DNA of 64,000 nt from Pseudomonadota bacterium. GTDB taxonomy: Bacteria > Pseudomonadota > Gammaproteobacteria > Acidiferrobacterales > Acidiferrobacteraceae. The notes beneath the pieces are model-generated. The model saw nothing but the letters and a program-made list of their open reading frames with translations. It did no database searches and was not told where the DNA came from. This document shows, piece after piece, positions 7,389-39,099 of the stretch. Each line of letters starts with the position of its first letter. Position 1 is the stretch's first letter. The stretch lies in assembly GCA_021819245.1 (NCBI GenBank), contig JAKARI010000003.1, positions 1 to 64,000 of the forward strand, given 5' to 3'. A program made the translations under genes and the position numbers.

Positions 7389-7431
7389 CTCGAGGCTCCT
7401 GGCAAAGTGGGGTTGACGGGGGAGGCGCGCT

Positions 7432-8610
7432 TCATTGCTCTACAGCGGTTGGTGCGCCGGCGGTCTCGAGATCGGCAAGAACTCCTGCGAGCAGCCCATC
7501 CAGGAATCGCCGGCCAAGCGGCGTGGCCCGCATGGTCTCGTCCTCGCGTGCCAGCAGACCGCGGGCGATGGCCCGCGACCAGAGCGGTTCCAGGTCCCCG
7601 AAGTCATGTCCGGTCCGCGCCCGAAGCAGGTCCCGCGGAAAGCCCTCGGTAAGGCGCAGGGCATTCAAGAGAAACTCGAAGATCACGTCCTGTGTAGCCA
7701 GCAGGCGGCGGCTTGCGATGCGGTCGGGCCCTTCCATGTAGCGGACCGGGTCGGCGATGCGCGTGATGCGCGCCACCGCGGCACCGCCCGTGAGCTTGCT
7801 GTGGGCGCCGGCCCCGAGCCCCAAATAGTCGCCGAATTGCCAGTAATTGAGATTGTGCGCGCAGCGGTATCCAGGCCGGGCATAGGCCGACACCTCGTAA
7901 CGTTCGTATCCGGCGGCATCTGCGGCCTGTGTTATCGCATCTTCTATGGCCGTGCGCAGATCTTCCGAGGGCAGGGCCGGCGGGTCGCGGGCAAAGGCGG
8001 TATGCGCCTCTATCGTGAGCTCGTAAAGCGACAGATGCGGCGGGTCCACGGCCAAGGCCGCGCGCACATCGGCCGCGGCCTGCCCTGGGGTCTGATCCGG
8101 AAGGCCGTACATGAGGTCGATATTGAAAGACGAGAAGCCCGCGCCGGCCGCGGCCTCCATGGCGTCACGGGCCTCGCGCGCGTCATGAATGCGTCCGAGT
8201 CGCCGCAAGGAGGGGGTGTGGAGGCTTTGCACCCCAAGCGATAGTCGCGTCACGCCGGCCTCGCGAAAGGCAAGAAAGCGGCTGCTGTCGACCGTGCCCG
8301 GGTTGGCCTCGAGCGTGATCTCGCAATCAGGGGCGAGCGTTGCCCGCCGGCCGACCCCGCTCAGGATGTCGCCGACGGCCGCCCCAGAGAACAGGCTTGG
8401 CGTCCCCCCGCCAAAAAATATCGTCTGAATCTCGCGTCCCCTCAAGGCCCCCAGGCTCTGGTCGAGATCATCGAGCACGGCGCGCACATAGACCCCCTCA
8501 GGCAGCGCCCCGCGCCGGGGCAGCGAGTGAAAATCGCAATAGGGGCATTTGGCCACACACCAGGGGATATGGATGTAAAGGCTCAGGGGCGGGAGAGAAG
8601 GGGCGGTCAT
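7432..8610 (-). CDS. hemW: Radical SAM haem chaperone HemW
   Basis: The 392-residue product starts with YIHIPWCVAKCPYCDFH, carrying the radical-SAM CxxxCxxC triad plus the extra HemW-type cysteine pattern. It continues with FFGGGTPSLF and the HemW-like C-terminal domain (EGFPRDLLRARTG). By family knowledge HemW binds haem and passes it to respiratory enzymes, and older annotations call it a coproporphyrinogen III oxidase-like protein. Its start overlaps rdgB by four bases, and it is the last member of an rph-rdgB-hemW unit, a common gammaproteobacterial arrangement. Confidence 0.92.
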   Translation of the reverse strand: MTAPSLPPLSLYIHIPWCVAKCPYCDFHSLPRRGALPEGVYVRAVLDDLDQSLGALRGREIQTIFFGGGTPSLFSGAAVGDILSGVGRRATLAPDCEITLEANPGTVDSSRFLAFREAGVTRLSLGVQSLHTPSLRRLGRIHDAREARDAMEAAAGAGFSSFNIDLMYGLPDQTPGQAAADVRAALAVDPPHLSLYELTIEAHTAFARDPPALPSEDLRTAIEDAITQAADAAGYERYEVSAYARPGYRCAHNLNYWQFGDYLGLGAGAHSKLTGGAAVARITRIADPVRYMEGPDRIASRRLLATQDVIFEFLLNALRLTEGFPRDLLRARTGHDFGDLEPLWSRAIARGLLAREDETMRATPLGRRFLDGLLAGVLADLETAGAPTAVEQ

Positions 8611-26249: not shown

Positions 26250-26349
26250 ATGCGCGCATGTATCATAAACCGTACATATCGCACTTACCTTAAAGCCCTG
26301 TGTAGCGCGAAATCCTTGACGATGTATCGGGCGACCCCTTGACCCGATT

Positions 26350-26369
26350 CTGTTTCAGAAATGAAACAG
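26350..26369. promoter_or_regulatory. Palindromic site upstream of the island (candidate activator box)
   Basis: The arms CTGTTTCA and TGAAACAG are perfect inverted copies separated by GAAA. The centre lies about 160 bases upstream of the candidate -24 element, the usual distance for a sigma-54 enhancer-binding protein. The VpsR-type activator at the other end of the island is the obvious candidate ligand, but this is inference. Confidence 0.5.
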
Positions 26370-26516: not shown

Positions 26517-26533
26517 TTGGCATAGTTCTTGTT
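26517..26533 (+). promoter_or_regulatory. Candidate sigma-54 (-24/-12) promoter
   Basis: The sequence TTGGCATAGTTCTTGTT fits the sigma-54 consensus TGGCAC-N5-TTGCW with the GG (26519) and the GT (26531) at the correct spacing. The one notable deviation is T instead of C in the -12 GC. It lies about 90 bases upstream of the first island gene. A sigma-54 activator is encoded in the same island. Confidence 0.5.
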
Positions 26534-26610
26534 AAAGGTCATGCCAGGGCGCCCGGCAGTTGCCATGTTCGGGCGTCGCCGTTCTGGCGTCATCACCGGG
26601 GTGGGGGATC

Positions 26611-27228
26611 ATGAGGCGTATTACCCTTGTTTTCATGGTGTCTGCGATGCCGCTTTTTGCGGCGGCCGAGGCGTGGGCGGGGTCCCTGCCGCCAAAGGCC
26701 CCGCCGACGGTCGTCAACGCCGCGTCGCTCGCGGGCTCCACGCTCTCTGACGGCAAGGGTGTGGCCGCGGTCAATGAAGCGGCAGGCCATGACAATGTTC
26801 AGGCCAATAGCGACGCCATCGCCAACGGCGGGCAGGCGACCGCGACGATCCATCAACAGCTGTCGGCGACGGTCACCGGGGTGGCTGCCAATACGGCGCG
26901 CATCGGGGGCGAGGCGTTTGCGCGCTTCTCGGGGATACTGAATGTGAATCAGGCCGCGGGCAGCGCCAATCTCGAGGCCAATAGCGTTACGGTGGCGCGG
27001 TCCCTTACGCCCCTTAGCCTCAGTCAGTTGATGGCCATCGCGCCACCCGTCAAACAGATCAATGACGTGCAGCTGCCGGCCACCGCGGCCGGCCATCGCG
27101 CGGTCACGGTCGCCGATAACGCCTTGAGCGGCGTGACGGGGATCGCCCAGGTGAGCCAGACAGCGGGCTCCGGGAACAGCTTAAGCAATAGCGTTGCGCT
27201 CAACATATCCGCGGGCATGCGTCCGTAG
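26611..27228 (+). CDS. Exported Fap-like small repeat protein
   Basis: The ATG at 26611, preceded by GGGGGA, gives 205 residues with a signal peptide ending near AAAEAWA. The mature protein carries three degenerate units of the pattern G-x-VN-x-AAG-x-x-N-x-x-AN: GVAAVNEAAGHDNVQANS, GILNVNQAAGSANLEANS and GIAQVSQTAGSGNSLSNS. This resembles the G(V/I)NxAAGxxNxQxN repeat of Pseudomonas FapB/FapC amyloids. By position it corresponds to FapA or FapB (chaperone or nucleator), but I cannot choose between them. It is the first gene after the candidate sigma-54 promoter. Confidence 0.65.
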   Translation: MRRITLVFMVSAMPLFAAAEAWAGSLPPKAPPTVVNAASLAGSTLSDGKGVAAVNEAAGHDNVQANSDAIANGGQATATIHQQLSATVTGVAANTARIGGEAFARFSGILNVNQAAGSANLEANSVTVARSLTPLSLSQLMAIAPPVKQINDVQLPATAAGHRAVTVADNALSGVTGIAQVSQTAGSGNSLSNSVALNISAGMRP

Positions 27229-27285
27229 GGGTGCTGGACCGGCTTGCTCACGCGGCCGTTTTGTTAACTCGAAAAGGAGAGGTGT

Positions 27286-29496
27286 ATGGCAACTCAGTGG
27301 AAACTTCGCACCATAGTGGCGGCCGTGGGCATGGCCCTGGTCGCGCCCATGGTCATGGCCCGGACGACCGGCGTGGCCCAGGCGACGGCAAGCAGCAGCC
27401 AGGTGGCCGCCGGTTCGATCGACTATACGTTCGGCTCGAACAATACGGCCACGGCCAGCAACCATGTCCTGCAAAATGCCAAGGGCAACATCGGCGCCAA
27501 TATCGCCGCCGGCAATGGCAACATGCAGGTCAATAACACCGACATAGCGCTTGCCAACGGCGCGCTCACGAAAAAGACCAGCACCTCGTCGCTGGTCGAC
27601 AACGCGCAGTGGAGCAACCTGTTCTCGGTGAGCGAGTCCGCGGACGTCACCAACACCGCCTCGGTCTCCCAGCACGCGCTGCAGAATGCTGCCGGCAACA
27701 TTGGCCTCAACGTCGCCTCCGGCGCCGACAACATGCAGGCCAACAACACCGCCATAAGCCACGCCCTGGGCGTGCTCCCGAGCGGTCAGGCCTCGGCCAT
27801 GATCGAAAGCGGCCAGCTGTCCGGCCCCGTCGGCATTGACTTCGCCTCTGGCGACAACAATACGGCGAGCCTTTCGAACCATGTCCTGCAGAACGCCTCG
27901 GGCAACATCGGCGTCAACGTCGCGGCCGGTGACGGCAACATGCAGGCAAACGCCCTGGCCGTGTCCTATAACCGTGGCGGCCTCGATGCCTATGCCGGTG
28001 CCGAGAGTGCCCAGGGGGCGCTCTTCGTGGGCGCCATGACCTTCGGCGCTGACAACGACGCCACGCTCTCGAACCATGTCCTGCAGAACGCCTCGGGCAA
28101 CATCGGCGTCAACGTCGCGGCGGGCCTGCAGAACATGCAGGAAAACGGCCTGTCGGTCGCGACCGCCGAGACGGTCTACCCGTATTCGCCGACGGCAGTT
28201 CGGGGTTCGAGTGTCGCCCAGGTCGCCAACGACCAGATCGGCGGTATCGTGCAGGGCAGCTACAACGTCGGGTCTGACAACGATGCGTCGCTTTCAAACC
28301 ACGTCCTGCAGAACGCCTCGGGCAATATCGGCGTCAACGCCGCCGCCGGCACGCAGAACATGCAGGCCAACAACACGTCCGTGGCGCTGAACTGGTCGAC
28401 GCGCTCGGGCGGCGTGGCGAGCGCCGGCGTCGCCAACAATCAGAATGCCGGGCCCTTGGCTGGTTCCATCAGCGAATTCGGCGATGACGATGCGGCCATC
28501 ACCAACCACGTCCTGCAGAACGCGAGCGGCAATGTGAACGTGAACGTCGCCTCGGGCGCCGAGAACATGCAGGCCAATGGCCTGGCGTCGGCCTACAACA
28601 ATGCCGGCAAGTTCGCCTCGGCGGCGATCGACAATGACCAGGGGACGGAAAGCTTCCTGGGCAACAGCGGGCGCTATTCTTACAGCTTGTTCGGCGCCGA
28701 CAATGCCTATCTGAACGACAAGGTCCTGCAGAACGCCTCGGGCAATGTCGGTGTCAACGTCGCGGCCGGCGACTGGAACCAGCAGGCGAACGATCTCTCG
28801 ATCGCCTACGCCGCGGGCCCGGTCGGCAGCACCACGACCGCCACCGCCGCCATTTCCGACAATCAGGCGAGCAACATGGCGTTCTACTTCCCGTCGATGG
28901 CATTCGACACCTTGGGGTCCATGACGGCAACGCTTTCGAACCACGTCCTGCAGAATGCGACCGGCAATATCGGGGTGAACGTCGCCTCGGGCCTGCAGAA
29001 TGCGCAGGCCAACAATACCGCGCTGGCGCAGGGCTGGGGCACGGGTAATGGCGACATGGATGCCGACAACACCGGCGGGCCGGCCACGGCCCTCATCACC
29101 GGGACTCAGAGCTCCGGCTGGTACTCGATCGCGGCCGACACGGGCGCTGCCAACACGGCGAGCGTAAGCGGGCATGTCCTGCAGAACGCCTCGGGCAACA
29201 TCGGCGCCAACGTCACAGCGGGCGTGCAGAACATGCAGAGCAACGACCTGGCCTATGCCTTCAATCAGGCCGGCAGCAACGCCTCGGCGGTAAGCCAGGT
29301 GTCGCAAGTGTCGTTGGGCGCCATCGCGACCGACACACCGGTGAGCTTCTGCTCGTACAACTATCTGCCGGTGGTCAACAGCGCGAGCGTGTCCAACCAT
29401 GTCCTGCAGAACGCCTCGGGCAATATCGGCCTGAACGTGGCGGCGGGCGCGGCCAACATGCAGCGCAACACCTTGACCATAGCGGACGCCGACTAA
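27286..29496 (+). CDS. FapC-like functional-amyloid fibril protein with ten repeats
   Basis: The 736-residue protein has a strong AAAAGGAGAGG ribosome-binding site and a signal peptide ending at VAPMVMA. The mature chain has ten units of the form HVLQNASGNIGVNVAAGxxNMQAN, starting near residues 60, 130, 199, 264, 339, 406, 479, 553, 629 and 705. They are separated by 40-50 residue linkers rich in Ala, Asn, Ser and Asp. The conserved Asn, Gln and Gly positions match the published Fap amyloid motif. Pseudomonas FapC has three repeats and a C-terminal CxxC. This one has ten and ends directly after the last repeat, with a single cysteine near residue 690. It should be secreted and form surface fibrils. 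A strong terminator follows immediately. Confidence 0.78.
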   Translation: MATQWKLRTIVAAVGMALVAPMVMARTTGVAQATASSSQVAAGSIDYTFGSNNTATASNHVLQNAKGNIGANIAAGNGNMQVNNTDIALANGALTKKTSTSSLVDNAQWSNLFSVSESADVTNTASVSQHALQNAAGNIGLNVASGADNMQANNTAISHALGVLPSGQASAMIESGQLSGPVGIDFASGDNNTASLSNHVLQNASGNIGVNVAAGDGNMQANALAVSYNRGGLDAYAGAESAQGALFVGAMTFGADNDATLSNHVLQNASGNIGVNVAAGLQNMQENGLSVATAETVYPYSPTAVRGSSVAQVANDQIGGIVQGSYNVGSDNDASLSNHVLQNASGNIGVNAAAGTQNMQANNTSVALNWSTRSGGVASAGVANNQNAGPLAGSISEFGDDDAAITNHVLQNASGNVNVNVASGAENMQANGLASAYNNAGKFASAAIDNDQGTESFLGNSGRYSYSLFGADNAYLNDKVLQNASGNVGVNVAAGDWNQQANDLSIAYAAGPVGSTTTATAAISDNQASNMAFYFPSMAFDTLGSMTATLSNHVLQNATGNIGVNVASGLQNAQANNTALAQGWGTGNGDMDADNTGGPATALITGTQSSGWYSIAADTGAANTASVSGHVLQNASGNIGANVTAGVQNMQSNDLAYAFNQAGSNASAVSQVSQVSLGAIATDTPVSFCSYNYLPVVNSASVSNHVLQNASGNIGLNVAAGAANMQRNTLTIADAD
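27460..29475 (+). repeat. Ten imperfect coding repeats in the amyloid gene
   Basis: The core CTGCAGAACGCCTCGGGCAA recurs about every 195-230 bases, near 27469, 27680, 27886, 28081, 28306, 28512, 28727, 28947, 29177 and 29403. Copies 1, 2, 6 and 8 vary at one or more bases. The strong nucleotide conservation of the cores, against variable linkers, suggests recent duplication or gene conversion. Confidence 0.85.
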
Positions 29497-29508
29497 GGCC
29501 CGCAGGAA

Positions 29509-29537
29509 GGGCGGGGGCCTGGCCCCCGCCCGTTTTT
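29509..29537 (+). terminator. Rho-independent terminator after the amyloid gene
   Basis: An 11-base perfect stem (GGGCGGGGGCC paired with GGCCCCCGCCC) with a minimal loop is followed by GTTTTTC. It lies 13 bases after the fibril-gene stop and 18 bases before the protease gene. It could reduce expression of downstream genes relative to the fibril subunit. Confidence 0.8.
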
Positions 29538-29554
29538 CTCCAAGGAATGAAACG

Positions 29555-30241
29555 ATGGCACACCGTCTGCGGTTTTGGATGCTCGGGCTTGCGATGCTGC
29601 CGATCCTGGCGCGGGCGGGGACGGTGGTTATCAACGGATTCGGGGGCGTGCCGCTCATTACGCACGTCACCAGCATGCAGGGCCTCAAGTTTCGGTCGGT
29701 GGTTCAGCAGCACACCGACTATAGCTGCGGGGCGGCGGCGATTGCGACCTTGGCGGACTACGCCTACGGGCGGCATCTGACCGAGGATCAGGTGATCATC
29801 GGGATGCTCAAGGTGAGCAACCGCAAGGTGGTCCAGCAAAAGGGATTCTCGATGCTGGATATGGCGCGCTATCTCACGCGCCTGGGGCTCCATGGGGCCG
29901 GGTACAAGGTACCGCCGGCCTTGCTGACGAAGCTCAGGGTACCGGTCATCGTACTGTTGAACATTCAGGGCTATGAGCATTTCGTGGTGTTGAAGGGGGT
30001 GGTGAATGGTCGCGCCTTTCTCGCCGATCCGGCGCTCGGGAATAGAAGTCTTGCCATGCGCCGTTTTGTCAAGGATTGGGATGGCGTGGTGTTTATCGTC
30101 ATGGGGCCGCATTACGACAAGGAAACGCCCCTACGCCAAGGCCTGCGGGCCGTGCGTGTCCATGGGCTCATGACAGCAGTGGAACGTGACGAGATTCGGA
30201 ACCTGCGGGAGTTCGGTTTCATTCCCGCGACGGATTTTTAA
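29555..30241 (+). CDS. FapD-like C39 family cysteine protease
   Basis: The 228-residue protein has a signal peptide (MAHRLRFWMLGLAMLPILARA) and a C39 peptidase domain. The catalytic Cys58 is in HTDYSCGAAAIATLADY, His142 in GYEHFVVLKG and Asp158 in FLADPALGN, a complete triad. In Pseudomonas the fap operon encodes a C39 protease (FapD) needed for fibril export. Its place directly after the fibril gene is the same here. An AAGGA ribosome-binding site lies after the terminator. Confidence 0.85.
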   Translation: MAHRLRFWMLGLAMLPILARAGTVVINGFGGVPLITHVTSMQGLKFRSVVQQHTDYSCGAAAIATLADYAYGRHLTEDQVIIGMLKVSNRKVVQQKGFSMLDMARYLTRLGLHGAGYKVPPALLTKLRVPVIVLLNIQGYEHFVVLKGVVNGRAFLADPALGNRSLAMRRFVKDWDGVVFIVMGPHYDKETPLRQGLRAVRVHGLMTAVERDEIRNLREFGFIPATDF

Positions 30242-30279
30242 CCTAAATGACTATGACGACCAGGATACAAGGGAGCAGT

Positions 30280-31068
30280 ATGAACGCGGGCAACCAGGGA
30301 ATGCGTGTACTTCGGGGCGCGGTGCGGATCATGGCAGCCGGCGCCACCTTAAGCGTACTGACCGTGGCCGCGCATGCCGAGACACTGCGCGGGCGCGATG
30401 TCAGCGTGATCATGGCCCGCACGCCGCTATCGGCGCGCGCGCTGTCAAACCTGCGCGGGCGCTACGTGGCGTCGGGCGGCGTGGTGTACTTCGGCCTCGA
30501 AATCGTGAGCCGCTGGACGCAGGCCGACGGCGCGGGGCTTTCCGTAGGCACGAACGTCAATCTTGGCATAGACGGCGAAGGCCACCCCCATCTTTCCGTG
30601 AACAGCTTTTCACATGAGATGGGCAGTAATGGCGGGGCGAGTTCCTCGGGTCACGGGACCATAACGGGCAATCCGATTGCCGGGGTCTCGGGCATAGGGC
30701 AGGGCATACAGACCACGGGTGACGGCAACGTGATTCAGAATGCCGCCGTGATCAATGTGACCAGCGGCGCGGCGGGTGGTTCGGGACCGTCCGGGCCCTC
30801 CGGCACGCGCAACCTTTCGGTGGTGGGTGGTGGCGGACAGGGCAGCGTGGAATTCAATGCCAATTCCGTGATCGTGGCCGTCAACGTGCCCGGGCAGGGT
30901 GTCATTCAGCAGACGCTAGGCGCGCAGGGGATCGGGCAGAGTGCCCAGGTCCTGTCGAGCGCCAACAATATCCTCAATCAAATGAGCTTAAACGTCGGTT
31001 TTGCGAAGAGCGGCGGTTTCTCCGCGGCCCAGATCAGCACGATTCTTGGGGCCATGCGAGGTCTTTGA
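30280..31068 (+). CDS. FapE-like exported protein
   Basis: I start at the ATG at 30280 (262 residues) because GGGAG lies just upstream and a signal peptide ends at TVAAHA; an ATG at 30247 would add 11 residues. After the signal, LSNLRGRYVASGGVVYFGLE is a recognisable conserved block seen in proteins next to FapD-type proteases. The C-terminal half has degenerate Gly/Asn/Gln-rich units such as GIGQGIQTTGDGNVIQNA and QGIGQSAQVLSSANNILNQ, echoing the amyloid repeat. FapE is a minor fibril component in Pseudomonas. The assignment rests on position and composition. Confidence 0.6.
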   Translation: MNAGNQGMRVLRGAVRIMAAGATLSVLTVAAHAETLRGRDVSVIMARTPLSARALSNLRGRYVASGGVVYFGLEIVSRWTQADGAGLSVGTNVNLGIDGEGHPHLSVNSFSHEMGSNGGASSSGHGTITGNPIAGVSGIGQGIQTTGDGNVIQNAAVINVTSGAAGGSGPSGPSGTRNLSVVGGGGQGSVEFNANSVIVAVNVPGQGVIQQTLGAQGIGQSAQVLSSANNILNQMSLNVGFAKSGGFSAAQISTILGAMRGL

Positions 31069-31082
31069 CGGATCATCACGGG

Positions 31083-31113
31083 AGACTGGGGACCGCGATG
31101 GGGAACCCAGTCT
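31083..31113. other. Hairpin between the amyloid and polysaccharide genes
   Basis: AGACTGGG (31083-31090) and CCCAGTCT (31106-31113) are perfect 8-base inverted copies with a 15-base loop. There is no T run, so it is not a standard terminator. It may be an RNA stem or operator separating two sub-operons. Confidence 0.4.
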
Positions 31114-31225
31114 TGGCATAAAAGCTCATTTGGAATAGCACATGTCTCGTCAGCTAGCGGGGTGGGAGGGTGCGCGCAAGCGCGCTCGAGGACGGCCGCG
31201 GTCCGCGACCAGCAATCACAAGACG

Positions 31226-32407
31226 ATGCGGGCCCTGGTGCTTACCGGGACGCGCCCGGACATCATAAAGAGCGCAAGCGTCGTTCATGCCCTCGAGGCC
31301 GCCGGCTGCCAGACATTTCTCGTTCATAGCGGGCAACACGAGGCCGCGGTCACGGAGCTCTACCAGTTTCTTGAGATGCGCCCCTTCGCCACCGTGCGCC
31401 TGGGGCCGCGCGGTCCCAGGCTTGCCGAATTGAATGCGCGGCTGCTCGATACGCTCGACCCGATTGTCACCCGTGTGAGGCCCGACGTGATCGTGGTCCA
31501 GGGCGACACGACCACCGCGCTTGTCGGCGCGCTTCTCGGATTCTATCACCGCGTGCCGGTGGCGCATGTGGAGGCGGGGCTGCGCTCCGGAGACTGCCAG
31601 GAGCCGTTTCCCGAGGAACTGAACCGCCGGCTCATTACCCGCATCGCGACGTGGCATTTCGCGCCGACACCGCTTGCCGTCGCGAGCCTTGAGGGCGAAG
31701 GCATTTCGCGCAAGGCCATCACCATGACCGGCAACACGGTAGTCGACGCCGCGTTGTTTGGTTACCGCCGCCTCGACGTGCAGAGCGAGTCCTGCGCGCA
31801 GACCTATGGCGCGCCGCGCCTCATCGTCGTTACTGCGCATCGCCGCGAGAACTGGGGGGCGGGTATCGAAGAGATCGGGTGGGGCGTGCGCCGTGTCGCC
31901 GAGCGCTTTACCGATGTCGCCGTGCTCTGGCCGCTGCATGCCAACCCCGAGGTTGCGATGAGCGTCAAGGCGGTATGGGATGGGCTCGCCCCGGATGTCC
32001 GCCGTCGCGTGCGGCTTGCCGATCCGCTTGCCTATCCCGACATGCTCCGGGTATTGCGTGATGCGTGGCTGCTCGTGACCGATTCCGGTGGATTGCAGGA
32101 AGAGGCGGTGACCGCGCGCATCCCGGTCCTGGTCACCCGCCGCCAGACCGAGCGCCCCGAGGTTGTGGCCTGCGGGGCCGGGCGGCTGGTAGGGGCGAAC
32201 GCCGGGCGCCTGGAGACAGAGATCACGCGGCTTTACCGCTCGAAGGCGAAATGGCAGGCCATGCGGCCTGCGCGCTCACCGTTTGGAGATGGCAGGGCTG
32301 GGCAGCGCATCGCGGCGGTATTGACGCGGTCCTGGACGGGTGGCCTGCGTCGTGCGCCACGGGCCGATGCCGCATGCGGCCTAGCGCGCGCCGGGATGGC
32401 CCCGTGA
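31226..32407 (+). CDS. UDP-N-acetylglucosamine 2-epimerase (WecB-like, non-hydrolysing)
   Basis: I start at the ATG at 31226 (393 residues), where the family-typical MRALVLTGTRPDIIKSA begins; the longer frame from 31142 adds an unconserved Arg-rich stretch. Motifs are complete: HSGQH, VVQGDTTTALVGAL, HVEAGLRSGD, PFPEELNRRLI, TGNTVVDA, TAHRRENWG and LVTDSGGLQEEA. By family knowledge it makes UDP-ManNAc from UDP-GlcNAc. The last 30 or so residues are Ala/Arg-rich and unconserved. It overlaps the next gene by four bases (GTGA) and would feed the GT2 synthase encoded downstream. Confidence 0.9.
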   Translation: MRALVLTGTRPDIIKSASVVHALEAAGCQTFLVHSGQHEAAVTELYQFLEMRPFATVRLGPRGPRLAELNARLLDTLDPIVTRVRPDVIVVQGDTTTALVGALLGFYHRVPVAHVEAGLRSGDCQEPFPEELNRRLITRIATWHFAPTPLAVASLEGEGISRKAITMTGNTVVDAALFGYRRLDVQSESCAQTYGAPRLIVVTAHRRENWGAGIEEIGWGVRRVAERFTDVAVLWPLHANPEVAMSVKAVWDGLAPDVRRRVRLADPLAYPDMLRVLRDAWLLVTDSGGLQEEAVTARIPVLVTRRQTERPEVVACGAGRLVGANAGRLETEITRLYRSKAKWQAMRPARSPFGDGRAGQRIAAVLTRSWTGGLRRAPRADAACGLARAGMAP

Positions 32408-33186
32408 GCGTTCCGCGAAAGGGCGATTGGCGGCGGTTCGCGGCCGTGCTCGCGGTCCTGCTTCCGGGCATCGCCTGTGCCCATGGCTGGGTCGGCGTCG
32501 GCGGTTCTTATTATCGCTTGACCCAGGGGTACGGCCATTTCGAGGGCCTGTACGCCAAGGGGGTCTTTGGGGAAGGGTCGGGCACCCTATGGAACTGGGA
32601 AGCCGATCATGGACGCCTGTTCGGGTACGAGGAGAATTATGGGGTTTTGGGTGTCACGCATACCTTCGCCCCGCGATGGTATGGCTACCTGAGCCTTGCG
32701 GGGAGCACCAATTCGGATGTGGTTCCGCAAGGCCGTGTCGATGCCAGCCTGTCCTACAAGGCGCTCCCGGACAAGCGCCTTGTCGTGACCGGCGGCTATA
32801 CCGGGATGCGTTTTCGCGATGGCCACGTAGACCGCAGCGCATGGACGAATCTGACCGCCTATTTCCCGGGGTACTGGGTGGCGATGGCCGGCCACAATTG
32901 GGCCACGAGCAATCCCGGTTCGGTGGAGGCGCAAAGAAGCTTTGCCGCCCTCGGTTACGACCACAGCGGGCAGACCGAAATCACCTTGCGCTATGGCTGG
33001 GGGGCCGAGGCCTACCTGCCGATCGGCGCCAATGTCGCGCTCGTCGATTTTCGTAGCCAGACCGCGTCCCTCACCTGGCGGCAGTGGCTTGGGACCGACT
33101 GGGGCACGGACATCTTCGCCGAGCGGTTCGCAAGCCCCTATTATCGCCAGATCGGAGGGTCCATCGGTGTCTTCTACCACTTTTGA
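32404..33186 (+). CDS. YaiO-like outer-membrane beta-barrel protein
   Basis: Translation from GTG at 32404 gives 260 residues with a signal peptide (VLAVLLPGIACA). The rest alternates aromatic and hydrophobic strands and ends in GVFYHF, a C-terminal aromatic typical of outer-membrane barrels. Blocks such as YYRLTQGYGHFEG and YLSLAGSTNSDVVPQGRVD resemble the YaiO family, often found in exopolysaccharide loci. It may be the outer-membrane component of polysaccharide export. It overlaps the epimerase stop. Confidence 0.7.
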   Translation: MSVPRKGDWRRFAAVLAVLLPGIACAHGWVGVGGSYYRLTQGYGHFEGLYAKGVFGEGSGTLWNWEADHGRLFGYEENYGVLGVTHTFAPRWYGYLSLAGSTNSDVVPQGRVDASLSYKALPDKRLVVTGGYTGMRFRDGHVDRSAWTNLTAYFPGYWVAMAGHNWATSNPGSVEAQRSFAALGYDHSGQTEITLRYGWGAEAYLPIGANVALVDFRSQTASLTWRQWLGTDWGTDIFAERFASPYYRQIGGSIGVFYHF

Positions 33187-33268
33187 CGAGGGCCGGGGCG
33201 CGCAGCGCGACGCACGTGCCGCAGGCTGGCGGGGTGGCATCATTCCCGCCCACAGGGGGCTGCGCATC

Positions 33269-33976
33269 ATGCCGCAGGAGCGGGGGCGCCGGGCACTGCC
33301 CTTGCTCCTGGGCCCGGTCTTCGCGCTGGCCGTATTCTTTGCGATCAATCCGGTCATCCTCCCGTTGTGGGCGGCGATCGAGGGTTTCTGGTGTGCCCGG
33401 GCGGTGCCCACGGTGACCGTCATCCGCATGGGTTACGTCCTGCCATGGGGGGTGAGTCTGCCGGTCCCGGTTCCTCACCTCGGCGCCTCCGGTCCCTCGC
33501 ATCTCGCGTGGGCGGTCAGTGTGCTGCTCACGGGTGTCGCGCTGGTCGTAGCCCTGGTCCTGCGCCGCCGTCACCTCCCGCTTTCGCTCGCGCTTTTTAC
33601 CCTGGTGGTGGTCTTTGCTATCGGTGCCGCCGGGTTTACCCCGGTGCTCGCGCCTTTCCCCTATACCATTCCGGGCTATATCGAGTCGATGCTGCTCATG
33701 GGGCTTGTCCTCATGTTCGTGACCCCGCTTTTATTCATGGCGATTTATTACCCGCTCGACTTCGGGCTTGGCAAGAAGATCGGTCTGACGCTCTATGTGC
33801 TGGTATGGCTTGCCGTCATGCTGCCTTGTCAATTCTGTCTGCAGGCGTTTGCCATCAACGAGCTCGGCCTGATCGCCTTGCCGACCCTGTTTCTGCTGTC
33901 AGGCCTTCTGCTCGATGTGATGGGGCTTGTCGCGTTCTATGCCTGGGGCATGAGCTGGAGATTGCGTCATGAATGA
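33269..33976 (+). CDS. Six-helix membrane protein of the polysaccharide operon
   Basis: I start at the ATG at 33269 (235 residues, MPQERGRRALPLLLG), though the frame is open further upstream and the start is uncertain. About six hydrophobic segments are visible, for example ALPLLLGPVFALAVFFAINP near the start and LGLIALPTLFLLSGLLLDVM near the end. I do not recognise the family. Its eight-base overlap with the GT2 synthase gene suggests it works with that enzyme, perhaps in the inner-membrane synthesis or translocation complex. Confidence 0.65.
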   Translation: MPQERGRRALPLLLGPVFALAVFFAINPVILPLWAAIEGFWCARAVPTVTVIRMGYVLPWGVSLPVPVPHLGASGPSHLAWAVSVLLTGVALVVALVLRRRHLPLSLALFTLVVVFAIGAAGFTPVLAPFPYTIPGYIESMLLMGLVLMFVTPLLFMAIYYPLDFGLGKKIGLTLYVLVWLAVMLPCQFCLQAFAINELGLIALPTLFLLSGLLLDVMGLVAFYAWGMSWRLRHE

Positions 33977-35318
33977 CACCTATCCCGTATCACTCGCCGG
34001 CCACGGCTTCGCGCCGCATGCCGAACTGATAGCCGTCCTTCAGCCCATAGCCTATGGGGTGGTATTGCTCGTGGTCCTCTACACCCTGCGCCACCTCTTT
34101 TTTACCTTAAACCGCCTCTTTGGCCACCAGCGCCACCCCTATCTCGATATCACCGAGGCGTCATGGCCGCCGGTGACGGTCGTCATACCCGCTCATAACG
34201 AACAACAGGTCATAGCCCATATCCTCGCGCGCATAATCTCCGTCGACTATCCCAAGGACCGATTGAGGATCCTGGCCATCGATGATCGCTCCACCGATGA
34301 GACGCCGGTGCTCCTGGACGCCTTCGCAAGCCTTCATCCCGGCCAAGTCCAGGTCCTGCACCGGCCGGCCGGTGCGCTGCCCGGCAAGGCCGCGGCCCTG
34401 GTCGATGCGACCCAGTATCTGATGGGCGACATAGCGCTTGTGTTCGATGCCGACTATCTCCCGGGCCCGGGACTCGTCAAGCAGCTCGTAGCGCCATTTT
34501 TCGATCCCGAGGTCGGCGGCGTCATGGGGCGCGTCGTCCCCTACAACAGCGGCACGAATCTCCTTACGCATCTCCTCGAGCTCGAGCGTTCCGGCGGTTA
34601 TCAGGTCGACCAGCAGGCGCGCGCGAATCTGCGCCTGATCCCCCAGTTTGGCGGCACCGTAGGCGGCGTCCGGGTCAGCGCGCTGCGTGCCATCGGCGGA
34701 TGGAATCCGCGCGCGCTGGCCGAGGACACTGACATCACCTATCGGCTGGCCATCGCTGGCTGGAAGATCGCCTATCAGAATCGCTCGGAGTGCTACGAAG
34801 AGGTCGTGGAGACATGGCCGGCCCGCTACCGCCAGCTGCGACGCTGGTCCCGGGGGCACAATCAGGTCCTGTTCCGTCACCTGCTGCCCCTTCTGCGCTC
34901 ATCGAAGATGACGCGCCGGCAACGCATCGACGGCGCCTTTCTGCTTGGCATCTATGCCATGGCGCCGGTACTTCTGACGGGGTGGGTCGTGCTCTACATC
35001 CTCTGGCTGTGTGGCGACAACGCCGGCGGGCTTTTGCTCATGCTGGCGGTCGTAAGCTACGGGACCTTCGGGAATGCCGCCGCATTCTACGAGATCGCCT
35101 CGGCCCTGCGGCTCGATGGAGAGCGCGACAAGGTCAAGGGTGTGCCGCTCATCCTGATCGGGTTCTTCGTGTCTACTTATGCCGCAACCGCGGGATTCCT
35201 GGCCGCGATCGGCGACATCTTGCGACCCACCCACATACACTGGCATAAGACGCCCCGCTATCGTGACCGGACCGCGGCCGCTCCCGATCCCGATCCGGCG
35301 GCGCCGACGGGTCCCTGA
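33969..35318 (+). CDS. Processive GT2 family glycosyltransferase (polysaccharide synthase)
   Basis: The 449-residue protein has an N-terminal membrane helix (about 25-45), a GT2 catalytic domain and two to three C-terminal helices (from about 320). Catalytic motifs are all present: IDDRSTDET (Asp105), DADY (Asp160, Asp162), the EDTD motif (252-255) and Q289LRRW293 (QxxRW). This is the pattern of processive synthases such as PgaC, BcsA and hyaluronan synthase. It should polymerise a sugar nucleotide at the inner membrane and extrude the chain. UDP-ManNAc or UDP-GlcNAc is suggested by the adjacent epimerase gene. No PilZ domain is seen. Confidence 0.88.
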   Translation: MNDTYPVSLAGHGFAPHAELIAVLQPIAYGVVLLVVLYTLRHLFFTLNRLFGHQRHPYLDITEASWPPVTVVIPAHNEQQVIAHILARIISVDYPKDRLRILAIDDRSTDETPVLLDAFASLHPGQVQVLHRPAGALPGKAAALVDATQYLMGDIALVFDADYLPGPGLVKQLVAPFFDPEVGGVMGRVVPYNSGTNLLTHLLELERSGGYQVDQQARANLRLIPQFGGTVGGVRVSALRAIGGWNPRALAEDTDITYRLAIAGWKIAYQNRSECYEEVVETWPARYRQLRRWSRGHNQVLFRHLLPLLRSSKMTRRQRIDGAFLLGIYAMAPVLLTGWVVLYILWLCGDNAGGLLLMLAVVSYGTFGNAAAFYEIASALRLDGERDKVKGVPLILIGFFVSTYAATAGFLAAIGDILRPTHIHWHKTPRYRDRTAAAPDPDPAAPTGP

Positions 35319-35327
35319 GGAGGCACC

Positions 35328-36359
35328 ATGTTCATTCTGTTGATCGCGGCGACCACCGCCCTGCTCATCCTCCCGTTCGCGCCGACCGCCGGCCTGTTCC
35401 TGCGCAATCGCGAGGCCCTTGGACCGTCTCCGCTCTCCGAGGGGGCCTACGCGCCCAATCATTTTGCGCGTGCCCTAATTACCAAACTGCGCGCCCGTGC
35501 GGACTCTGTCGTACAGCCCGTAACCGTCATGCTCGAGTGTCGGCTCGACGGTGAGCCCTTGCTTGTCCTTCCGCCGTCCATGCGCCGCGCGCCGTCGGAC
35601 TGCACGGCAAAAATGAGCTATGCCCTGGCCGACCTGGTTTTGCCGCCGGCCATGGCGTGCGGCAAGGAGATAGCCACGGAGGGGTCCTTGGAGACAGGCG
35701 AGGGTGCCCAGTGTCGTGCCTTATATGCCGCCGACTCGCTGCATATCAACCGGAATTCGAGGATCGTTCGCTGGTGCCATGCGGATTCCGACTTGAAAGT
35801 GGATGCGGGTTGCTGGATACTGGGCCGGGCATCAGCCAATAAAATGATAAAGATCGACGCGCCTTGTACGTTTGTCTCGATGACGGCGCCGGTGATCTTG
35901 CTGGGGTATGCAAAACCACCGACAGGACATCCTGCGACAGAAGGCGGGGGGGCCGCTGAGGGCGCAGATCGGGTGGTGCGCGGGCCGGTGTCGTTGGCGG
36001 CGGGGACGGTGCTGCGCGGATCGGTCAAGGCCTACGGGCGGCTGTGCGTGGGCGCCCATAGCGTCATAGAAGGCGCGCTCGTGTGTGATGGCGATATCCT
36101 CATAGGGCCGGGTTGCCGGATCGGGGGTCCGATCGTGGCCGAGGGCGATGTCTATATTGCGGGGGGCTGCGAGGTGGGGTGGCCGGGCCATCCGGCGTCG
36201 GTTGTCGGCGAAGAGGTCGAGATCAGTGTGCCGGCCGCGGTCTGCGGGGCCATCCATGCGCGCCGTCGCGGGGTTATTGCAGAAACGCAGAATAATATTA
36301 TTGAATGCTCGGACAGCGGGAACGACCGGCCGCTGCCGACTCCATCCACGAGACATTAA
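35328..36359 (+). CDS. Membrane-anchored bactofilin-like (polymer-forming, beta-helix) protein
   Basis: The 343-residue protein starts with one hydrophobic segment (MFILLIAATTALLILPFAP). The central and C-terminal part carries short repeating turns such as LAAGTVLRGSVKAYGRLCVG, SVIEGALVCDGDILIGPGC and IGGPIVAEGDVYIAGG. These match the left-handed or bactofilin-type beta-helix in which each turn contributes a Gly/hydrophobic rung. Bactofilins polymerise into scaffolds. This one could organise the polysaccharide machinery. It starts nine bases after the synthase gene. The N-terminal third (35-200) is unrecognised. Confidence 0.65.
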   Translation: MFILLIAATTALLILPFAPTAGLFLRNREALGPSPLSEGAYAPNHFARALITKLRARADSVVQPVTVMLECRLDGEPLLVLPPSMRRAPSDCTAKMSYALADLVLPPAMACGKEIATEGSLETGEGAQCRALYAADSLHINRNSRIVRWCHADSDLKVDAGCWILGRASANKMIKIDAPCTFVSMTAPVILLGYAKPPTGHPATEGGGAAEGADRVVRGPVSLAAGTVLRGSVKAYGRLCVGAHSVIEGALVCDGDILIGPGCRIGGPIVAEGDVYIAGGCEVGWPGHPASVVGEEVEISVPAAVCGAIHARRRGVIAETQNNIIECSDSGNDRPLPTPSTRH

Positions 36360-36371
36360 AGGAGCATCACT

Positions 36372-37445
36372 GTGCGCGCCCGGGCCTATCGTTCGCTTGT
36401 CGTGGCACTGGCCATGAGCGCTGTCGCGACCTCCATGGCCTGGGCGGGGACGACGTCATCGCCGGGTCCGCTCGATATCCAGCACAAGCCCAAGGTCCAG
36501 GAGAGCGTGCAGGCGGTTTATCGCCAGCAAAACGCCCTGTTCAAGGCCGGACAGGTGATCCTGCAGCCCGGCATCAGCTATGCCTATTCCGACAGCAATG
36601 CCCTGACCCTGAATGGGTTTTTGGCCCTGGGGGCGATATTCCTCGGGCAGATCAATGTGAGTCAGGTGCAAAGCAATATCGAGACCCTGTCGCTTCAGAC
36701 GAGCTACGCCCCCACCGATAATCTCGAGCTGTCGCTGACCATCCCGTACCTCGCCCGGCAGAGCACCTATGTATCAGTCGGCGCCAATAGCTCAAGCCTG
36801 CAGGCAAGTCAGCAGAATGTCACCAACAAGGGTGAAATCGGGGATGTCAGTGCGGCCCTGTATTACCAGCTTCCGGGGAGCAGCGGGGGCGATGCCACCA
36901 TCTGGAATCTGACGGCCAAGGCGCCCACCGGGCGGGGGCCCTATGGCATCCCAGTCGTCACGCAGGCGGCGAACAACAACCTGAGCTATCCCCAGTCGCT
37001 GCCGACGGGCAATGGGGTGTGGTCGGTATCGACGGGCCTGTCATTCATAAAGCCCGCAAGTCCGGCCATTCTGTTCGGAAGCCTCAGTTATACTTACAAT
37101 ATTCCTCGGAGCTTCGGCAATATCTCGAGTACGACGACGCCGCAGCCGGGAGAGGTTGCAGGCGGAAATTCCGTGAGCTTCGGAGGGGGGACTGCCTTCG
37201 CGCTCAATCGCCGGGTGAGTCTTACGCTATCCATGGACGAGACATTCATTGCCGAGACGAGCATAAAGCCCGCGGGGGGCTCGTGGCAGGCGGTCGTCGG
37301 CAGCAGCGGCAATGCGGCGGTGTTGAATTTGGGCATGTCCTATGCCGAAAGCCGTCGGGTGACGGTCGTCACCAATGTCGCCGTGGGGTTGACGAAAGAC
37401 GCCCCGAATATCGATCTGAGCGTGACGGTGCCAACGATCTTCTAG
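36372..37445 (+). CDS. FapF-like outer-membrane secretion porin
   Basis: Translation from GTG at 36372 (357 residues) is supported by an AAAGGAG ribosome-binding site 8-14 bases upstream. A signal peptide ends near MAWA. Next comes a possible helical segment (KPKVQESVQAVYRQQNALFK), then a beta-barrel beginning LQPGISYAYSDSNALTLNG and GAIFLGQINVSQVQSNIETL, and ending in TVPTIF. In Pseudomonas FapF forms a trimeric barrel with a helical plug that exports amyloid subunits, and this layout matches. Here it lies after the polysaccharide genes instead of directly after FapE. Confidence 0.72.
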   Translation: MRARAYRSLVVALAMSAVATSMAWAGTTSSPGPLDIQHKPKVQESVQAVYRQQNALFKAGQVILQPGISYAYSDSNALTLNGFLALGAIFLGQINVSQVQSNIETLSLQTSYAPTDNLELSLTIPYLARQSTYVSVGANSSSLQASQQNVTNKGEIGDVSAALYYQLPGSSGGDATIWNLTAKAPTGRGPYGIPVVTQAANNNLSYPQSLPTGNGVWSVSTGLSFIKPASPAILFGSLSYTYNIPRSFGNISSTTTPQPGEVAGGNSVSFGGGTAFALNRRVSLTLSMDETFIAETSIKPAGGSWQAVVGSSGNAAVLNLGMSYAESRRVTVVTNVAVGLTKDAPNIDLSVTVPTIF

Positions 37446-37534
37446 TGTCATAGTCTGGGAGTAGGGTAGGGGTTATGGCAGCCGTTTTCGAGAGGCCGGT
37501 TGCCTTCACTGTATCGAGGGCCCCGCACCGCGAA

Positions 37535-37566
37535 GGGACGTTGTAAAAGTCCCGTCGGGGCCCCGA
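37535..37566 (+). other. Two adjacent stem structures upstream of the activator gene
   Basis: GGGAC (37535-37539) pairs with GTCCC (37549-37553) across a nine-base loop. A perfect 12-base palindrome TCGGGGCCCCGA follows at 37555-37566. These lie in the 205-base gap before the VpsR-type gene. They may act as a terminator-like stem for the upstream genes or as an operator; there is no T run. Confidence 0.4.
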
Positions 37567-37650
37567 TAAAGGGGTTGTTCGCCTGGCAAGTGGCGCTGTG
37601 TGGGCCGAACGGACTCCTGCCGCAGCTCGAATTGATGGAAAGGAGAGACG

Positions 37651-39099
37651 GTGTTGCAGGCCGGGGAAGGTCATAATAACGAGCATTTCGGATTTCTCGG
37701 CGGATCGGGGAGCGAACCCCGCTCGCTGCTGGTCTATTGTGCCGCCAAGTCGCTTCCGTTTCACGAGGCCGACATCACGAGTCACGGCTGGAGCCTGACC
37801 CGTGTCGGGACGTGGGCCGCGGCGCGCTCCTACATGGACCGCATGGGGGCGGGCGTCGGCCTCGCATGCCTGCAGGATACCACCGAGAAGGCGGTGTCGG
37901 ACGCCGAGGCCTTGCTGGGGTATGGCCATAGCCGTTTCCGGTGGGTTGCGATTCTCGATCTGGCATTTCTCAAGAGCGCTGTCGCCAATCACCTCATCAG
38001 TGAATGTTGTCTCGATTTTCATGTTGCGCCCGTGGACGTGCCGCGGCTCTTGCATGGCCTCGGCCATGCCCTGGGGATGGCGCACCTCAGCTGCAACCGG
38101 GCCGAGGCCCGCTCCGAAACCCGCGTCGAGAAGAATATCATTGGCGTAAGCCGGGCCATAAAGGCCACCGTCCAACGAATCGAAAAGATCAGCCAGTCCG
38201 ACGCGCCGGTCCTGATTCAGGGCGAGACGGGGACCGGCAAGGAGCTGTGCGCGCTGGCCGTTCACGCCCATTCGTCGCGTGGCTCGCGCCCGTTTGTGGC
38301 GGTCAACTGCGGGGCGCTGCCCGACAAACTGATTCAGTCGGAACTCTTTGGCCACGAGAAGGGCGCCTTTACCGGCGCCTATCAGCGCAAGATCGGACGC
38401 ATCGAGGCGGCCGAGGGCGGCACGTTGTTTTTGGATGAGATCGGTGACCTCTCGCTCGATCTTCAGGTCAACCTTCTGCGGATCCTGCAGGGCGGCACTT
38501 ATGAGCGCGTGGGGGGCACCGAGACCATGCGTGCCGATATCCGCGTTATCGCCGCCACGCATGTCGACCTGGAACGGGCGGTGGGGGAAAAGCGGTTCCG
38601 CGAGGACCTGTACTATCGCCTGAACGTGCTGAATCTGGATGTGCCGCCATTACGCAGCCGCGATGGCGATGTGGCGTTGCTGGCGCGCCACTGGTTCGAG
38701 GTGTTTGCCGCCGAGAAGAATCCGCGTGTACGCGGCTTTAGCCGCGATGCCTTCGCGGCATTGAACGGGCACCGCTGGCCGGGGAACGTGCGGGAGCTTA
38801 TAAACCGCGTCCGCCGCGCCATGGTGATGTGTGAGCGGCAGCTCATTGGCCCTGAGGACCTCGGTCTTGATTATGTCGAATACGCCCACGATGCCGGGGC
38901 CGAGGAGACGCTCGCGCAGGCCCGTGAGCGCGCGGAGCGCGAGGCGATCTGCGAGGCCATTGACAGGCATGCGGGCAATCTGTCGCGCGCGGCGCGGGCG
39001 CTCGGGGTATCGCGTGTCACGCTCTATCGTCTGCTCGAAAAATACCAGCTATCCCCCCGCTCGCCACAAAGCGAGGCGCCACCGGCACGCGCCTCTTAA
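37651..39099 (+). CDS. VpsR-type sigma-54-dependent transcriptional activator
   Basis: Translation from GTG at 37651 (482 residues) is supported by AAAGGAGAGACG just upstream. Residues 20-145 look like an atypical receiver resembling the VpsR N-terminal domain (LLVYCAAKSLPFHEADIT). The AAA+ domain has Walker A GETGTGKE (191-198), the sigma-54-contact motif GAFTGA (238-243), GGTLFLDEIGDL and RFREDLYYRLNVL. The C-terminal Fis-type helix-turn-helix is NLSRAARALGVSRVTLYRLL. In Vibrio, VpsR activates exopolysaccharide genes in a c-di-GMP-responsive way. Its position at the island end suggests it controls the island. Confidence 0.88.
   Translation: MLQAGEGHNNEHFGFLGGSGSEPRSLLVYCAAKSLPFHEADITSHGWSLTRVGTWAAARSYMDRMGAGVGLACLQDTTEKAVSDAEALLGYGHSRFRWVAILDLAFLKSAVANHLISECCLDFHVAPVDVPRLLHGLGHALGMAHLSCNRAEARSETRVEKNIIGVSRAIKATVQRIEKISQSDAPVLIQGETGTGKELCALAVHAHSSRGSRPFVAVNCGALPDKLIQSELFGHEKGAFTGAYQRKIGRIEAAEGGTLFLDEIGDLSLDLQVNLLRILQGGTYERVGGTETMRADIRVIAATHVDLERAVGEKRFREDLYYRLNVLNLDVPPLRSRDGDVALLARHWFEVFAAEKNPRVRGFSRDAFAALNGHRWPGNVRELINRVRRAMVMCERQLIGPEDLGLDYVEYAHDAGAEETLAQARERAEREAICEAIDRHAGNLSRAARALGVSRVTLYRLLEKYQLSPRSPQSEAPPARAS

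What the first reader, a model, noticed from the sequence alone, without database searches (positions are those of the whole stretch)
26611..39099. Amyloid and exopolysaccharide genes interleaved in one island
Between the FapE-like and FapF-like genes lie a UDP-GlcNAc 2-epimerase, a YaiO-like barrel, a six-helix membrane protein, a processive GT2 synthase and a bactofilin-like protein, all on the same strand with overlaps or gaps under about 160 bases. The FapF-like porin is transcribed with the polysaccharide genes. This suggests one programme making a composite matrix of amyloid and a ManNAc- or GlcNAc-based polymer, resembling in logic the E. coli WecB-NfrAB pathway. I know of no described locus of this composition.
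Basis: inference. Interest (0 to 1): 0.85.

Follow-up and report, generated by a model that had tools for sequence, protein, structure and literature searches.

The report
Amyloid operon with embedded polysaccharide synthase
In Acidiferrobacter-type bacteria, the genes for a biofilm amyloid fibre and for a sugar polymer are interleaved in what looks like one operon, so a single switch could make a mixed protein-and-sugar matrix.

Summary
A Fap amyloid operon (fapB-C-D-E ... fapF, then a VpsR-domain sigma-54-type activator) is split by five polysaccharide genes: wecB, a YaiO barrel, a polytopic membrane protein (TM6), a GT2 synthase and a bactofilin-like protein. The composite occurs in 10 of 14 genus genomes searched and in one genome of another family (G317). 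wecB, yaiO, tm6 and gt2 overlap by 4, 20 and 8 nt in 10 of 10 genus loci. A conserved sigma-54-like site lies before fapB; no equal was found inside the island; rpoN is present. The five genes are the core of a module that stands alone elsewhere, mostly with a deacetylase-like protein and a probably secreted protein of unknown family; neither was found in the 11 composite genomes. FapF and GT2 trees fit one origin of the composite, with transfer and losses: a sister genus has fap without the module, and one contig keeps a wecB remnant and a decayed bactofilin gene. So the halves are separable but stably joined. Composite-clade FapFs lack the coiled coil that Pseudomonas FapF needed for secretion. 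Co-expression is inferred; polymer chemistry and physical mixing are not shown. The NfrAB analogy is only partial.

The parts
26259..26276 (+). imperfect inverted repeat (TGTATC-type half site), candidate upstream activator site 1
   Evidence: 2 mismatches; such sites are no commoner in the window than chance: 11 found, 10.9 expected; half sites recur at this place in the genus alignment
26351..26368 (+). perfect inverted repeat TGTTTC-N6-GAAACA, candidate upstream activator site 2
   Evidence: only 0-mismatch site in the window; a looser palindrome TGTNNC-N4-8-GNNACA at this place in 6 of 6 genus loci with 420 bases upstream, but none in G014 or G317
26518..26534 (+). sigma-54-like promoter (TGGCA-type -24, TTGT-type -12, GG-N10-GT)
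   Evidence: conserved in 9 of 9 aligned genus loci, 8 composite and the deleted contig C140; only match in the window at <=3 mismatches, 0.16 expected; only 0-mismatch site in each of 6 genomes; score 0.89 against a shuffled 95% level of 0.84 and maximum of 0.94, with weights of my own that allow T at -12, set after the site was seen
26611..27228 (+). fapB-like minor amyloid subunit
   Evidence: NCBIfam FapB E 1.3e-28, below equivalog cut-off
27286..29496 (+). fapC major amyloid subunit, 10 Fap repeats
   Evidence: NCBIfam FapC 229 bits, above cut-off; repeats
29509..29537 (+). GC-rich hairpin with T-run after fapC, candidate attenuator
   Evidence: 10 G-C pairs then GTTTTT; similar hairpin seen by eye in the 11 loci printed (genus alignment)
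29555..30241 (+). fapD C39 peptidase
   Evidence: Pfam Peptidase_C39 E 9e-21; NCBIfam FapD E 7e-59, below equivalog cut-off
30247..31068 (+). fapE fibril subunit
   Evidence: NCBIfam FapE E 1.6e-26, below equivalog cut-off
31142..32407 (+). wecB non-hydrolysing UDP-GlcNAc 2-epimerase (true start may be 31223)
   Evidence: TIGR00236 343 bits, above cut-off; the only Epimerase_2 match in the 91% complete genome
32404..33186 (+). YaiO-family outer-membrane barrel
   Evidence: TIGR04390 139.8 bits, above cut-off; Pfam YaiO
33167..33976 (+). TM6 polytopic membrane protein; GTG start overlaps yaiO by 20 nt
   Evidence: in-frame GTG at the same place in 10 of 10 genus loci and G317; homologues in stand-alone clusters; no Pfam family above cut-off
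33969..35318 (+). GT2 synthase, PgaC-like, with processive-type D, DxD, ED and QxxRW motifs
   Evidence: motif residues invariant in alignment A1 of 9 sequences; motif meaning recalled
35328..36359 (+). membrane-anchored bactofilin-like beta-helix protein
   Evidence: anchor read by eye from the N-terminus
36372..37445 (+). fapF amyloid exporter without the N-terminal coiled coil
   Evidence: solved FapF E 2e-76; N-terminus
37651..39099 (+). VpsR-domain / AAA+ (GAFTGA) / Fis-HTH activator
   Evidence: Pfam VpsR E 8e-23, Sigma54_activat E 5e-70; GAFTGA read

Best explanation
The island is one sigma-54-driven matrix operon made by inserting a five-gene synthase-type exopolysaccharide module (wecB-yaiO-tm6-gt2-bactofilin) between fapE and fapF of a Fap operon. 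Inferred working: the VpsR-domain activator binds upstream sites and starts transcription at 26518-26534. A hairpin after fapC lowers read-through, so FapB/FapC subunits exceed the machinery. WecB supplies UDP-ManNAc (or balances it with UDP-GlcNAc). GT2 with TM6 polymerises and translocates the sugar, the bactofilin-like protein holds the synthase patch, and YaiO passes the polymer outwards. FapF exports FapB/C/E after FapD processing. Both products would be made together as a mixed matrix. Shown: gene content, order, overlaps, conservation, purifying selection, a conserved promoter-like site, trees that fit a single origin, and loss of one half in relatives. Inferred: transcription as one unit, enzyme activities, polymer identity, mixing outside the cell.
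For: Order fapBCDE-wecB-yaiO-tm6-gt2-bact-fapF-reg in 10 of 14 genus genomes (9 seen from fapB, 1 from fapD on because its locus starts there) and in G317. wecB/yaiO overlap 4 nt, yaiO/tm6 20 nt and tm6/gt2 8 nt in 10 of 10 genus loci. Promoter-like site before fapB in 9 of 9 aligned genus loci, similar sites in G014 and G317; no second site in the window at <=3 mismatches; rpoN in 8 of 8 genomes searched. Hairpin after fapC. dN/dS 0.04-0.35 in 64 of 66 gene-by-pair comparisons, the other 2 (regulator) not computed. Composite FapFs with G014 and G013 C117 form one clade, 100/100; composite GT2s split from stand-alone ones, 94/91. Stand-alone module in other genera.
Against: No transcript data. 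Internal promoters cannot be excluded: 5 weak sigma-70-like matches against 2.9 expected, two on the + strand at 35793 and 36694. Terminator-like sites exceed expectation (20 against 8.3), one on the + strand at the fapD-fapE border, 30204-30229. The -12 element is GT, not GC; a strict consensus search missed the site. The palindromes are not enriched in the window and were not found in G014 or G317. The module can be lost while fap stays: G014, and G013 contig C140; G003 gt2 has an in-frame TGA. Polymer chemistry unknown; the GT2 is far below the PNAG synthase cut-off (106.9 against 422).
Confidence: 0.6

Rival explanations
1. Operon hitch-hiking: the polysaccharide genes share the fap promoter for timing only; the two products work separately and do not form a composite.
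For: The module exists alone elsewhere; fap persists without it in G014 and on G013 contig C140.
Against: The link has lasted across species with dS up to about 1.4 with fixed junctions, and the module's usual deacetylase-like and secreted partners were not found in the composite genomes, which points to adaptation.
Confidence: 0.25
2. Two adjacent operons: fapBCDE ends at or after fapE, and wecB to fapF is driven by its own undetected promoter.
For: Gaps of 70-84 nt lie between fapE and wecB in the genus (73 in the window, 38 in G317); bactofilin-fapF gaps are 12-91 nt. Dueholm 2013 reports fapF detached from the main operon in 4 of 16 genera and perhaps in other operons (PMC3792158, section 14). 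Terminator-like sites are over-represented in the island.
Against: No sigma-54-like site above the shuffled 95% level within 205 nt upstream of wecB, bactofilin or fapF, and no sigma-70-like match at the fapE-wecB gap.
Confidence: 0.17
3. The polymer genes make a surface glycan or capsule-like coat (acid or phage protection) rather than biofilm matrix; the amyloid is the only matrix component.
For: The WecB-dependent E. coli glycan NGR is a surface glycan used by phage N4 (PMC8669472, passages); E. coli and E. fergusonii carry a related cluster near fimbrial-type genes or regulators.
Against: Insertion inside an amyloid operon next to a VpsR-domain regulator, a family named for Vibrio polysaccharide control (recalled).
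Confidence: 0.1

Closest known systems
Fap functional amyloid operon of Pseudomonas (fapABCDEF)
   Same: FapB, C, D, E, F homologues in the same relative order; FapF matches the solved structures 5o65/5o67/5o68
   Different: No fapA seen (absent in 6 of 16 genera, PMC3792158 section 14); FapC has 10 repeats instead of 3 (expansions are known in Acidithiobacillus and Vibrio, section 16); FapF lacks the coiled coil; five polysaccharide genes between fapE and fapF; its own VpsR-domain activator
   Same: GT2 46-55% identical; the other core genes are homologous, but in the enterobacterial clusters YaiO, TM6 and bactofilin match only weakly (E 1e-3 to 1e-8)
   Different: Most also carry a CE4-like protein (an acyltransferase in the enterobacterial ones) and a probably secreted protein; no fap genes were seen beside them
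E. coli K-12 yaiP-yaiX-yaiO
   Same: GT2 (26% identity, E 1e-8); YaiO family by annotation and by TIGR04390 in the E. coli control
   Different: No WecB, TM6 or bactofilin annotated beside it; acyltransferase yaiX, broken by IS2; no pairwise YaiO match at E<=0.01
E. coli NfrA-NfrB-WecB (NGR glycan)
   Same: WecB plus a GT2 synthase plus an outer-membrane barrel as a scheme
   Different: No BLASTP match of GT2 to NfrB or of YaiO to NfrA at E<=0.01; no c-di-GMP domain found on the GT2
PNAG system PgaABCD
   Same: Best NCBIfam model of the GT2 is PgaC/IcaA (E 1e-30); 25% identity to K-12 PgaC
   Different: Far below the PgaC cut-off; no PgaB-like or PgaA-like gene in the island

Membership tests
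Fap functional amyloid system | FapC with Fap repeats | tested here: met
   above cut-off; 10 repeats
Fap functional amyloid system | FapD C39 peptidase and FapF porin family | tested here: met
   both below the NCBI equivalog cut-offs
Fap functional amyloid system | FapB and FapE subunits | tested here: met
   E 1e-28 and 2e-26, below equivalog cut-offs
Fap functional amyloid system | FapF N-terminal periplasmic coiled coil (truncated FapF failed to secrete FapC in the E. coli assay of PMC5557850, section 7) | tested here: not met
   plug motif at residue 37-49 in 12 of 12 full-length composite-clade FapFs (11 composite, 1 G014), at 75-111 in the 6 others where it was recognised; not recognised in 25 rows. 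Late-starting model matches also occur outside the clade
Fap functional amyloid system | Extracellular amyloid fibres | not testable with these tools
   needs expression
NfrAB/WecB NGR system | WecB epimerase | tested here: met
NfrAB/WecB NGR system | NfrB-type GT2 with c-di-GMP-binding MshEN domain | tested here: not met
   (no BLASTP match at E<=0.01; NfrB 745 aa, this GT2 449 aa); no such domain among the matches
NfrAB/WecB NGR system | NfrA TPR plus 16-strand barrel | tested here: not met
   (no match; NfrA 990 aa, this YaiO 260 aa)
PNAG (PgaABCD) | PgaC above family cut-off, with PgaB and PgaA | tested here: not met
   106.9 bits against 422.3; no deacetylase or TPR porin family in the island
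Synthase-dependent exopolysaccharide systems (general) | Membrane GT2 synthase and outer-membrane barrel encoded together | tested here: met
   processivity inferred from motifs
Bactofilins | PF04519 domain above cut-off | tested here: inconclusive
   24.6 against 27.9 bits; 12 of 12 relatives match at E<=0.1; the E. fergusonii homologue passes, 31.0; in the PDB search GlmU (E 6e-4) scores better than bactofilin 6ria (E 0.025); structure jobs failed
sigma-54 enhancer-binding proteins | AAA+ with GAFTGA loop, HTH, and rpoN in the genome | tested here: met

The most novel reading that the evidence does not exclude
The two export lines are one co-evolved machine: the polymer synthase patch and the short, coiled-coil-less FapF are coupled, so that amyloid subunits are released into and templated on the nascent sugar polymer, giving a true glycan-amyloid composite fibre made by a dedicated hybrid operon.
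Probability: 0.12. Interest if true: 0.85.

Novelty: new variant of a known kind. Interest (0 to 1): 0.62.

Why it matters
Amyloid and polysaccharide are main structural parts of many biofilms, but in the model systems they are made from separate operons joined by regulators (curli and cellulose; recalled). Here they appear to share one operon, which makes a composite matrix testable with single gene removals. The case also brings out a rare polysaccharide module (WecB, YaiO, TM6, GT2, bactofilin-like), found on a conjugative plasmid too, for which no described system was found in the searches run, and a FapF clade that lacks the domain Pseudomonas FapF needed for secretion.

Tried and rejected
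Strict sigma-54 consensus in the window: 8 matches, no more than chance; the conserved site was found only by aligning upstream regions. The palindromes alone are not enriched in the window. A test for a relic of the module between fapE and fapF of G014 gave only an insignificant bactofilin-like scrap with a stop (E 0.03). My first TM6 query was in the wrong frame (33270); its rows are void and were redone from 33269. Idea that bactofilin belongs to the fap half: rejected, because gt2 and bactofilin are neighbours in 8 of 8 stand-alone clusters L112, L113, L114, L118, L163, L164, L165 and L186; in the two enterobacterial ones it lies on the far side of wecB. Idea that contigs C140 and C117 of G013 are one locus: rejected, their fapF overlap is 92.7% identical over 248 bases. 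In the FapF tree two hits (L142, L148) were dropped because their loci are cut short, and FapF hits without a fetched locus, the C140 FapF and several weaker fetched hits (L021-L026, L029) were not put in; the tree's label 'no island' for C117 is a guess, since that contig ends inside fapF. In the GT2 tree one outgroup row fell out as too short, the G003 gt2 and the plasmid GT2s were not put in, and the outgroup branches are very long.
Full report
What is there. The window comes from an Acidiferrobacter-like genome: of six related loci found in the named genome collection, two (one isolate) are titled Acidiferrobacter sp. and four Proteobacteria bacterium. Ten genes of the finding plus a regulator lie on the + strand from 26611 to 39099. 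Family searches identify FapB, FapC, FapD, FapE, WecB, YaiO, a membrane protein without family (TM6), a GT2 synthase nearest to PgaC/IcaA, a bactofilin-like protein, FapF and a VpsR-domain AAA+ activator with a Fis-type HTH. FapC, WecB and YaiO are above their NCBIfam cut-offs; FapB, D, E and F are homologues below the equivalog cut-offs. FapF matches the solved FapF at E 2e-76. No FapA was seen: the stretch before fapB holds only frames of at most 87 aa, which were not searched against families, and the only FapA match among the genes scanned is at chance level inside FapB (E 0.03).

Not chance. Of 14 genomes of the genus (window included), 10 carry FapF and the GT2 and 4 carry neither (those four are 85-94% complete, so some absences may be gaps). 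In the 10, both lie in one island with the same order; one locus starts inside fapD and one regulator is cut by a contig end. The junctions are fixed: wecB/yaiO overlap 4 nt, yaiO/tm6 20 nt and tm6/gt2 8 nt in 10 of 10 genus loci; in G317 the last two are 20 and 11 nt. Two of the ten (G005, G013) are nearly identical and not independent. In six species pairs dN/dS is 0.04-0.35 in 64 of 66 comparisons; the regulator could not be compared in two pairs, and broken copies were taken only up to their first stop.

Wider distribution. G317, of another family of the class, has the same island, with wecB, yaiO and gt2 at 51, 51 and 62% identity. It also has a second fap locus with a longer FapF. Four other genomes of its family, two of them congeners, lack the GT2 at E<=1e-70. 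In an even sample of the class the GT2 clade is in 5 of 369 genomes: three composite (G000, G004, G317) and two stand-alone (G267, G391; G391 has a distant FapF-like gene about 95 kb away). FapF-like proteins at E<=1e-10 are in 39 of 369. In a phylum sample the GT2 clade is in 4 of 398, one being the window genome. Both the GT2 clade and the composite are rare.

A module of its own. Outside fap islands the GT2 sits with the same partners. In L112, L114, L163, L164, L165 and the Cupriavidus plasmid pMTS1 (L186) matches to wecB, gt2, bactofilin, YaiO, TM6, a CE4-like protein and a 336-aa-type, probably secreted protein lie together; L113 is cut by its contig end and shows four of them; L118 shows yaiO, tm6, gt2 and bactofilin only. 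The CE4-like name rests on weak hits (E 4e-3 to 1e-4). An E. fergusonii conjugative plasmid and an E. coli chromosome carry bactofilin-wecB-yaiO-hypothetical-acyltransferase-hypothetical-GT2; there the GT2 is 46% identical, the first hypothetical is a weak TM6 match (E 1e-3 to 1e-4), the second matches the secreted protein (E 1e-39 and better), and YaiO and bactofilin match weakly. The CE4-like and secreted proteins were found in none of the 11 composite genomes nor in G014; the only positive was G042, the query's own genome, so the control is an easy one. The fap island thus holds only the core five genes.

History. The FapF tree puts the genus FapFs, G317's island copy, G014 and G013 contig C117 in one clade with 100/100 support; G317's second FapF is far away. 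The GT2 tree separates composite from stand-alone synthases, 94/91, with long outgroups. G014, of a sister genus, has fapBCDEF-regulator without the polymer genes, and no GT2 of this clade in its genome. Contig C140 of G013 has fapBCDE, then two collinear pieces of wecB, then a bactofilin gene with stops, then fapF up to the contig end: a deletion scar. G013 is a MAG with 4% contamination, so this contig may be another strain. The simplest reading is one origin of the composite, one transfer between families and two losses (G014 and the C140 lineage); a separate capture in G317 is not formally excluded.

Control. Alignment of the region before fapB shows TGGCAYRGTTYTTGTTA in 9 of 9 genus loci, 77-95 bases before the called fapB start. 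It has the -24/-12 spacing of sigma-54 promoters with GT in place of GC. It is the only match in the window at up to 3 mismatches and the only exact match in each of 6 genomes; matches with 2 mismatches there are at control level. G014 and G317 have TGGCACG-N4-TTGAT-type sites before their fap genes. rpoN is in 8 of 8 genomes searched, and the island's own activator has the GAFTGA loop. Loose palindromes lie 157-169 bases upstream of the promoter in 6 of 6 genus loci with enough sequence, but not in G014 or G317. VpsR-domain activators also stand beside other fap loci: 7 of the 9 neighbouring activators scanned have the domain; these 9 come from 13 non-genus fap loci looked at, in the other 4 of which no activator hit was seen. 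A hairpin with a T-run follows fapC in the 11 loci printed, as expected of an attenuator; terminator-like sites are over-represented in the island generally (20 against 8.3 expected), another one lying at the fapD-fapE border. That the polymer genes are expressed at the lower level of fapD, fapE and fapF is inference.

FapF. Pseudomonas FapF has an N-terminal periplasmic coiled coil; a truncated FapF without it did not support FapC secretion in E. coli (PMC5557850, section 7 read). In 12 of 12 composite-clade FapFs with a full N-terminus the plug motif begins at residue 37-49, leaving room for little more than a signal peptide; in the six other FapFs where the motif was recognised it is at 75-111, a lower bound because those rows are clipped; in 25 rows it was not recognised. 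Some FapF-like proteins outside the clade also match the model only from position 78 on or later, so a short N-terminus is not unique. G014 shares the short form without the polymer genes, so these are probably not a simple substitute for the coiled coil. How the plug is opened is unexplained.

Compared with the literature. Dueholm 2013 (PMC3792158; abstract, passages and sections 14 and 16 read) describes a conserved fap operon whose usual changes are loss of fapA (6 of 16 genera) and detached fapF (4 of 16), and says detached fapF may sit in other operons; the words polysaccharide and glycosyl do not occur at a word start in its text. Rouse 2018 (PMC6173800, passages) says the fap operon encodes no regulatory protein. 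The NGR paper (PMC8669472, passages) gives the WecB-NfrAB scheme; its synthase and porin do not match here. Paper searches listed no paper that describes a fap-polysaccharide operon or a bactofilin-YaiO-WecB synthase system; only listings were seen for all but four papers, and the library is open-access only, so this is weak evidence of novelty.

Verdict. A real, conserved composite operon joining two known kinds of matrix system. New variant of a known kind; not a new mechanism unless the two export lines prove to be coupled.

Noticed in passing
L168:1343-2514 (genome G009; regulator pieces at L042:5040-5777 and 7024-7740): The VpsR-domain regulator of this nearly complete genome is split by an insertion with two transposase-like frames (106 and 332 aa, IS3-type by eye), while the rest of the island is kept.
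   Followed up: partly
L043 (genome G003), gt2; L033 (genome G004), fapC: G003 gt2 has an in-frame TGA and the G004 fapC frame ends early; sequencing error or decay, not decided.
   Followed up: no
L185:3581-10206 (E. fergusonii plasmid pRHB18-C04_2) and L187:7669-14580 (E. coli AH19B041 chromosome): A related bactofilin-wecB-yaiO-hypothetical-acyltransferase-hypothetical-GT2 cluster; megablast with the plasmid cluster matched 2 of 5426 E. coli genomes, over 15% of the query.
   Followed up: partly
L112:11771-12778 and L112:12774-14627: Two partners of the stand-alone module: a 336-aa protein without Pfam family and a 618-aa CE4-like protein, found together in seven clusters (L112, L113, L114, L163, L164, L165, L186).
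   Followed up: partly
window 36372-37445: FapF clade without the coiled coil; how its plug is opened is unexplained.
   Followed up: partly
L045, L046, L048, L050, L166, L037, L116: VpsR-domain sigma-54-type activators are neighbours of non-Pseudomonas fap loci (7 of 9 neighbours scanned).
   Followed up: partly
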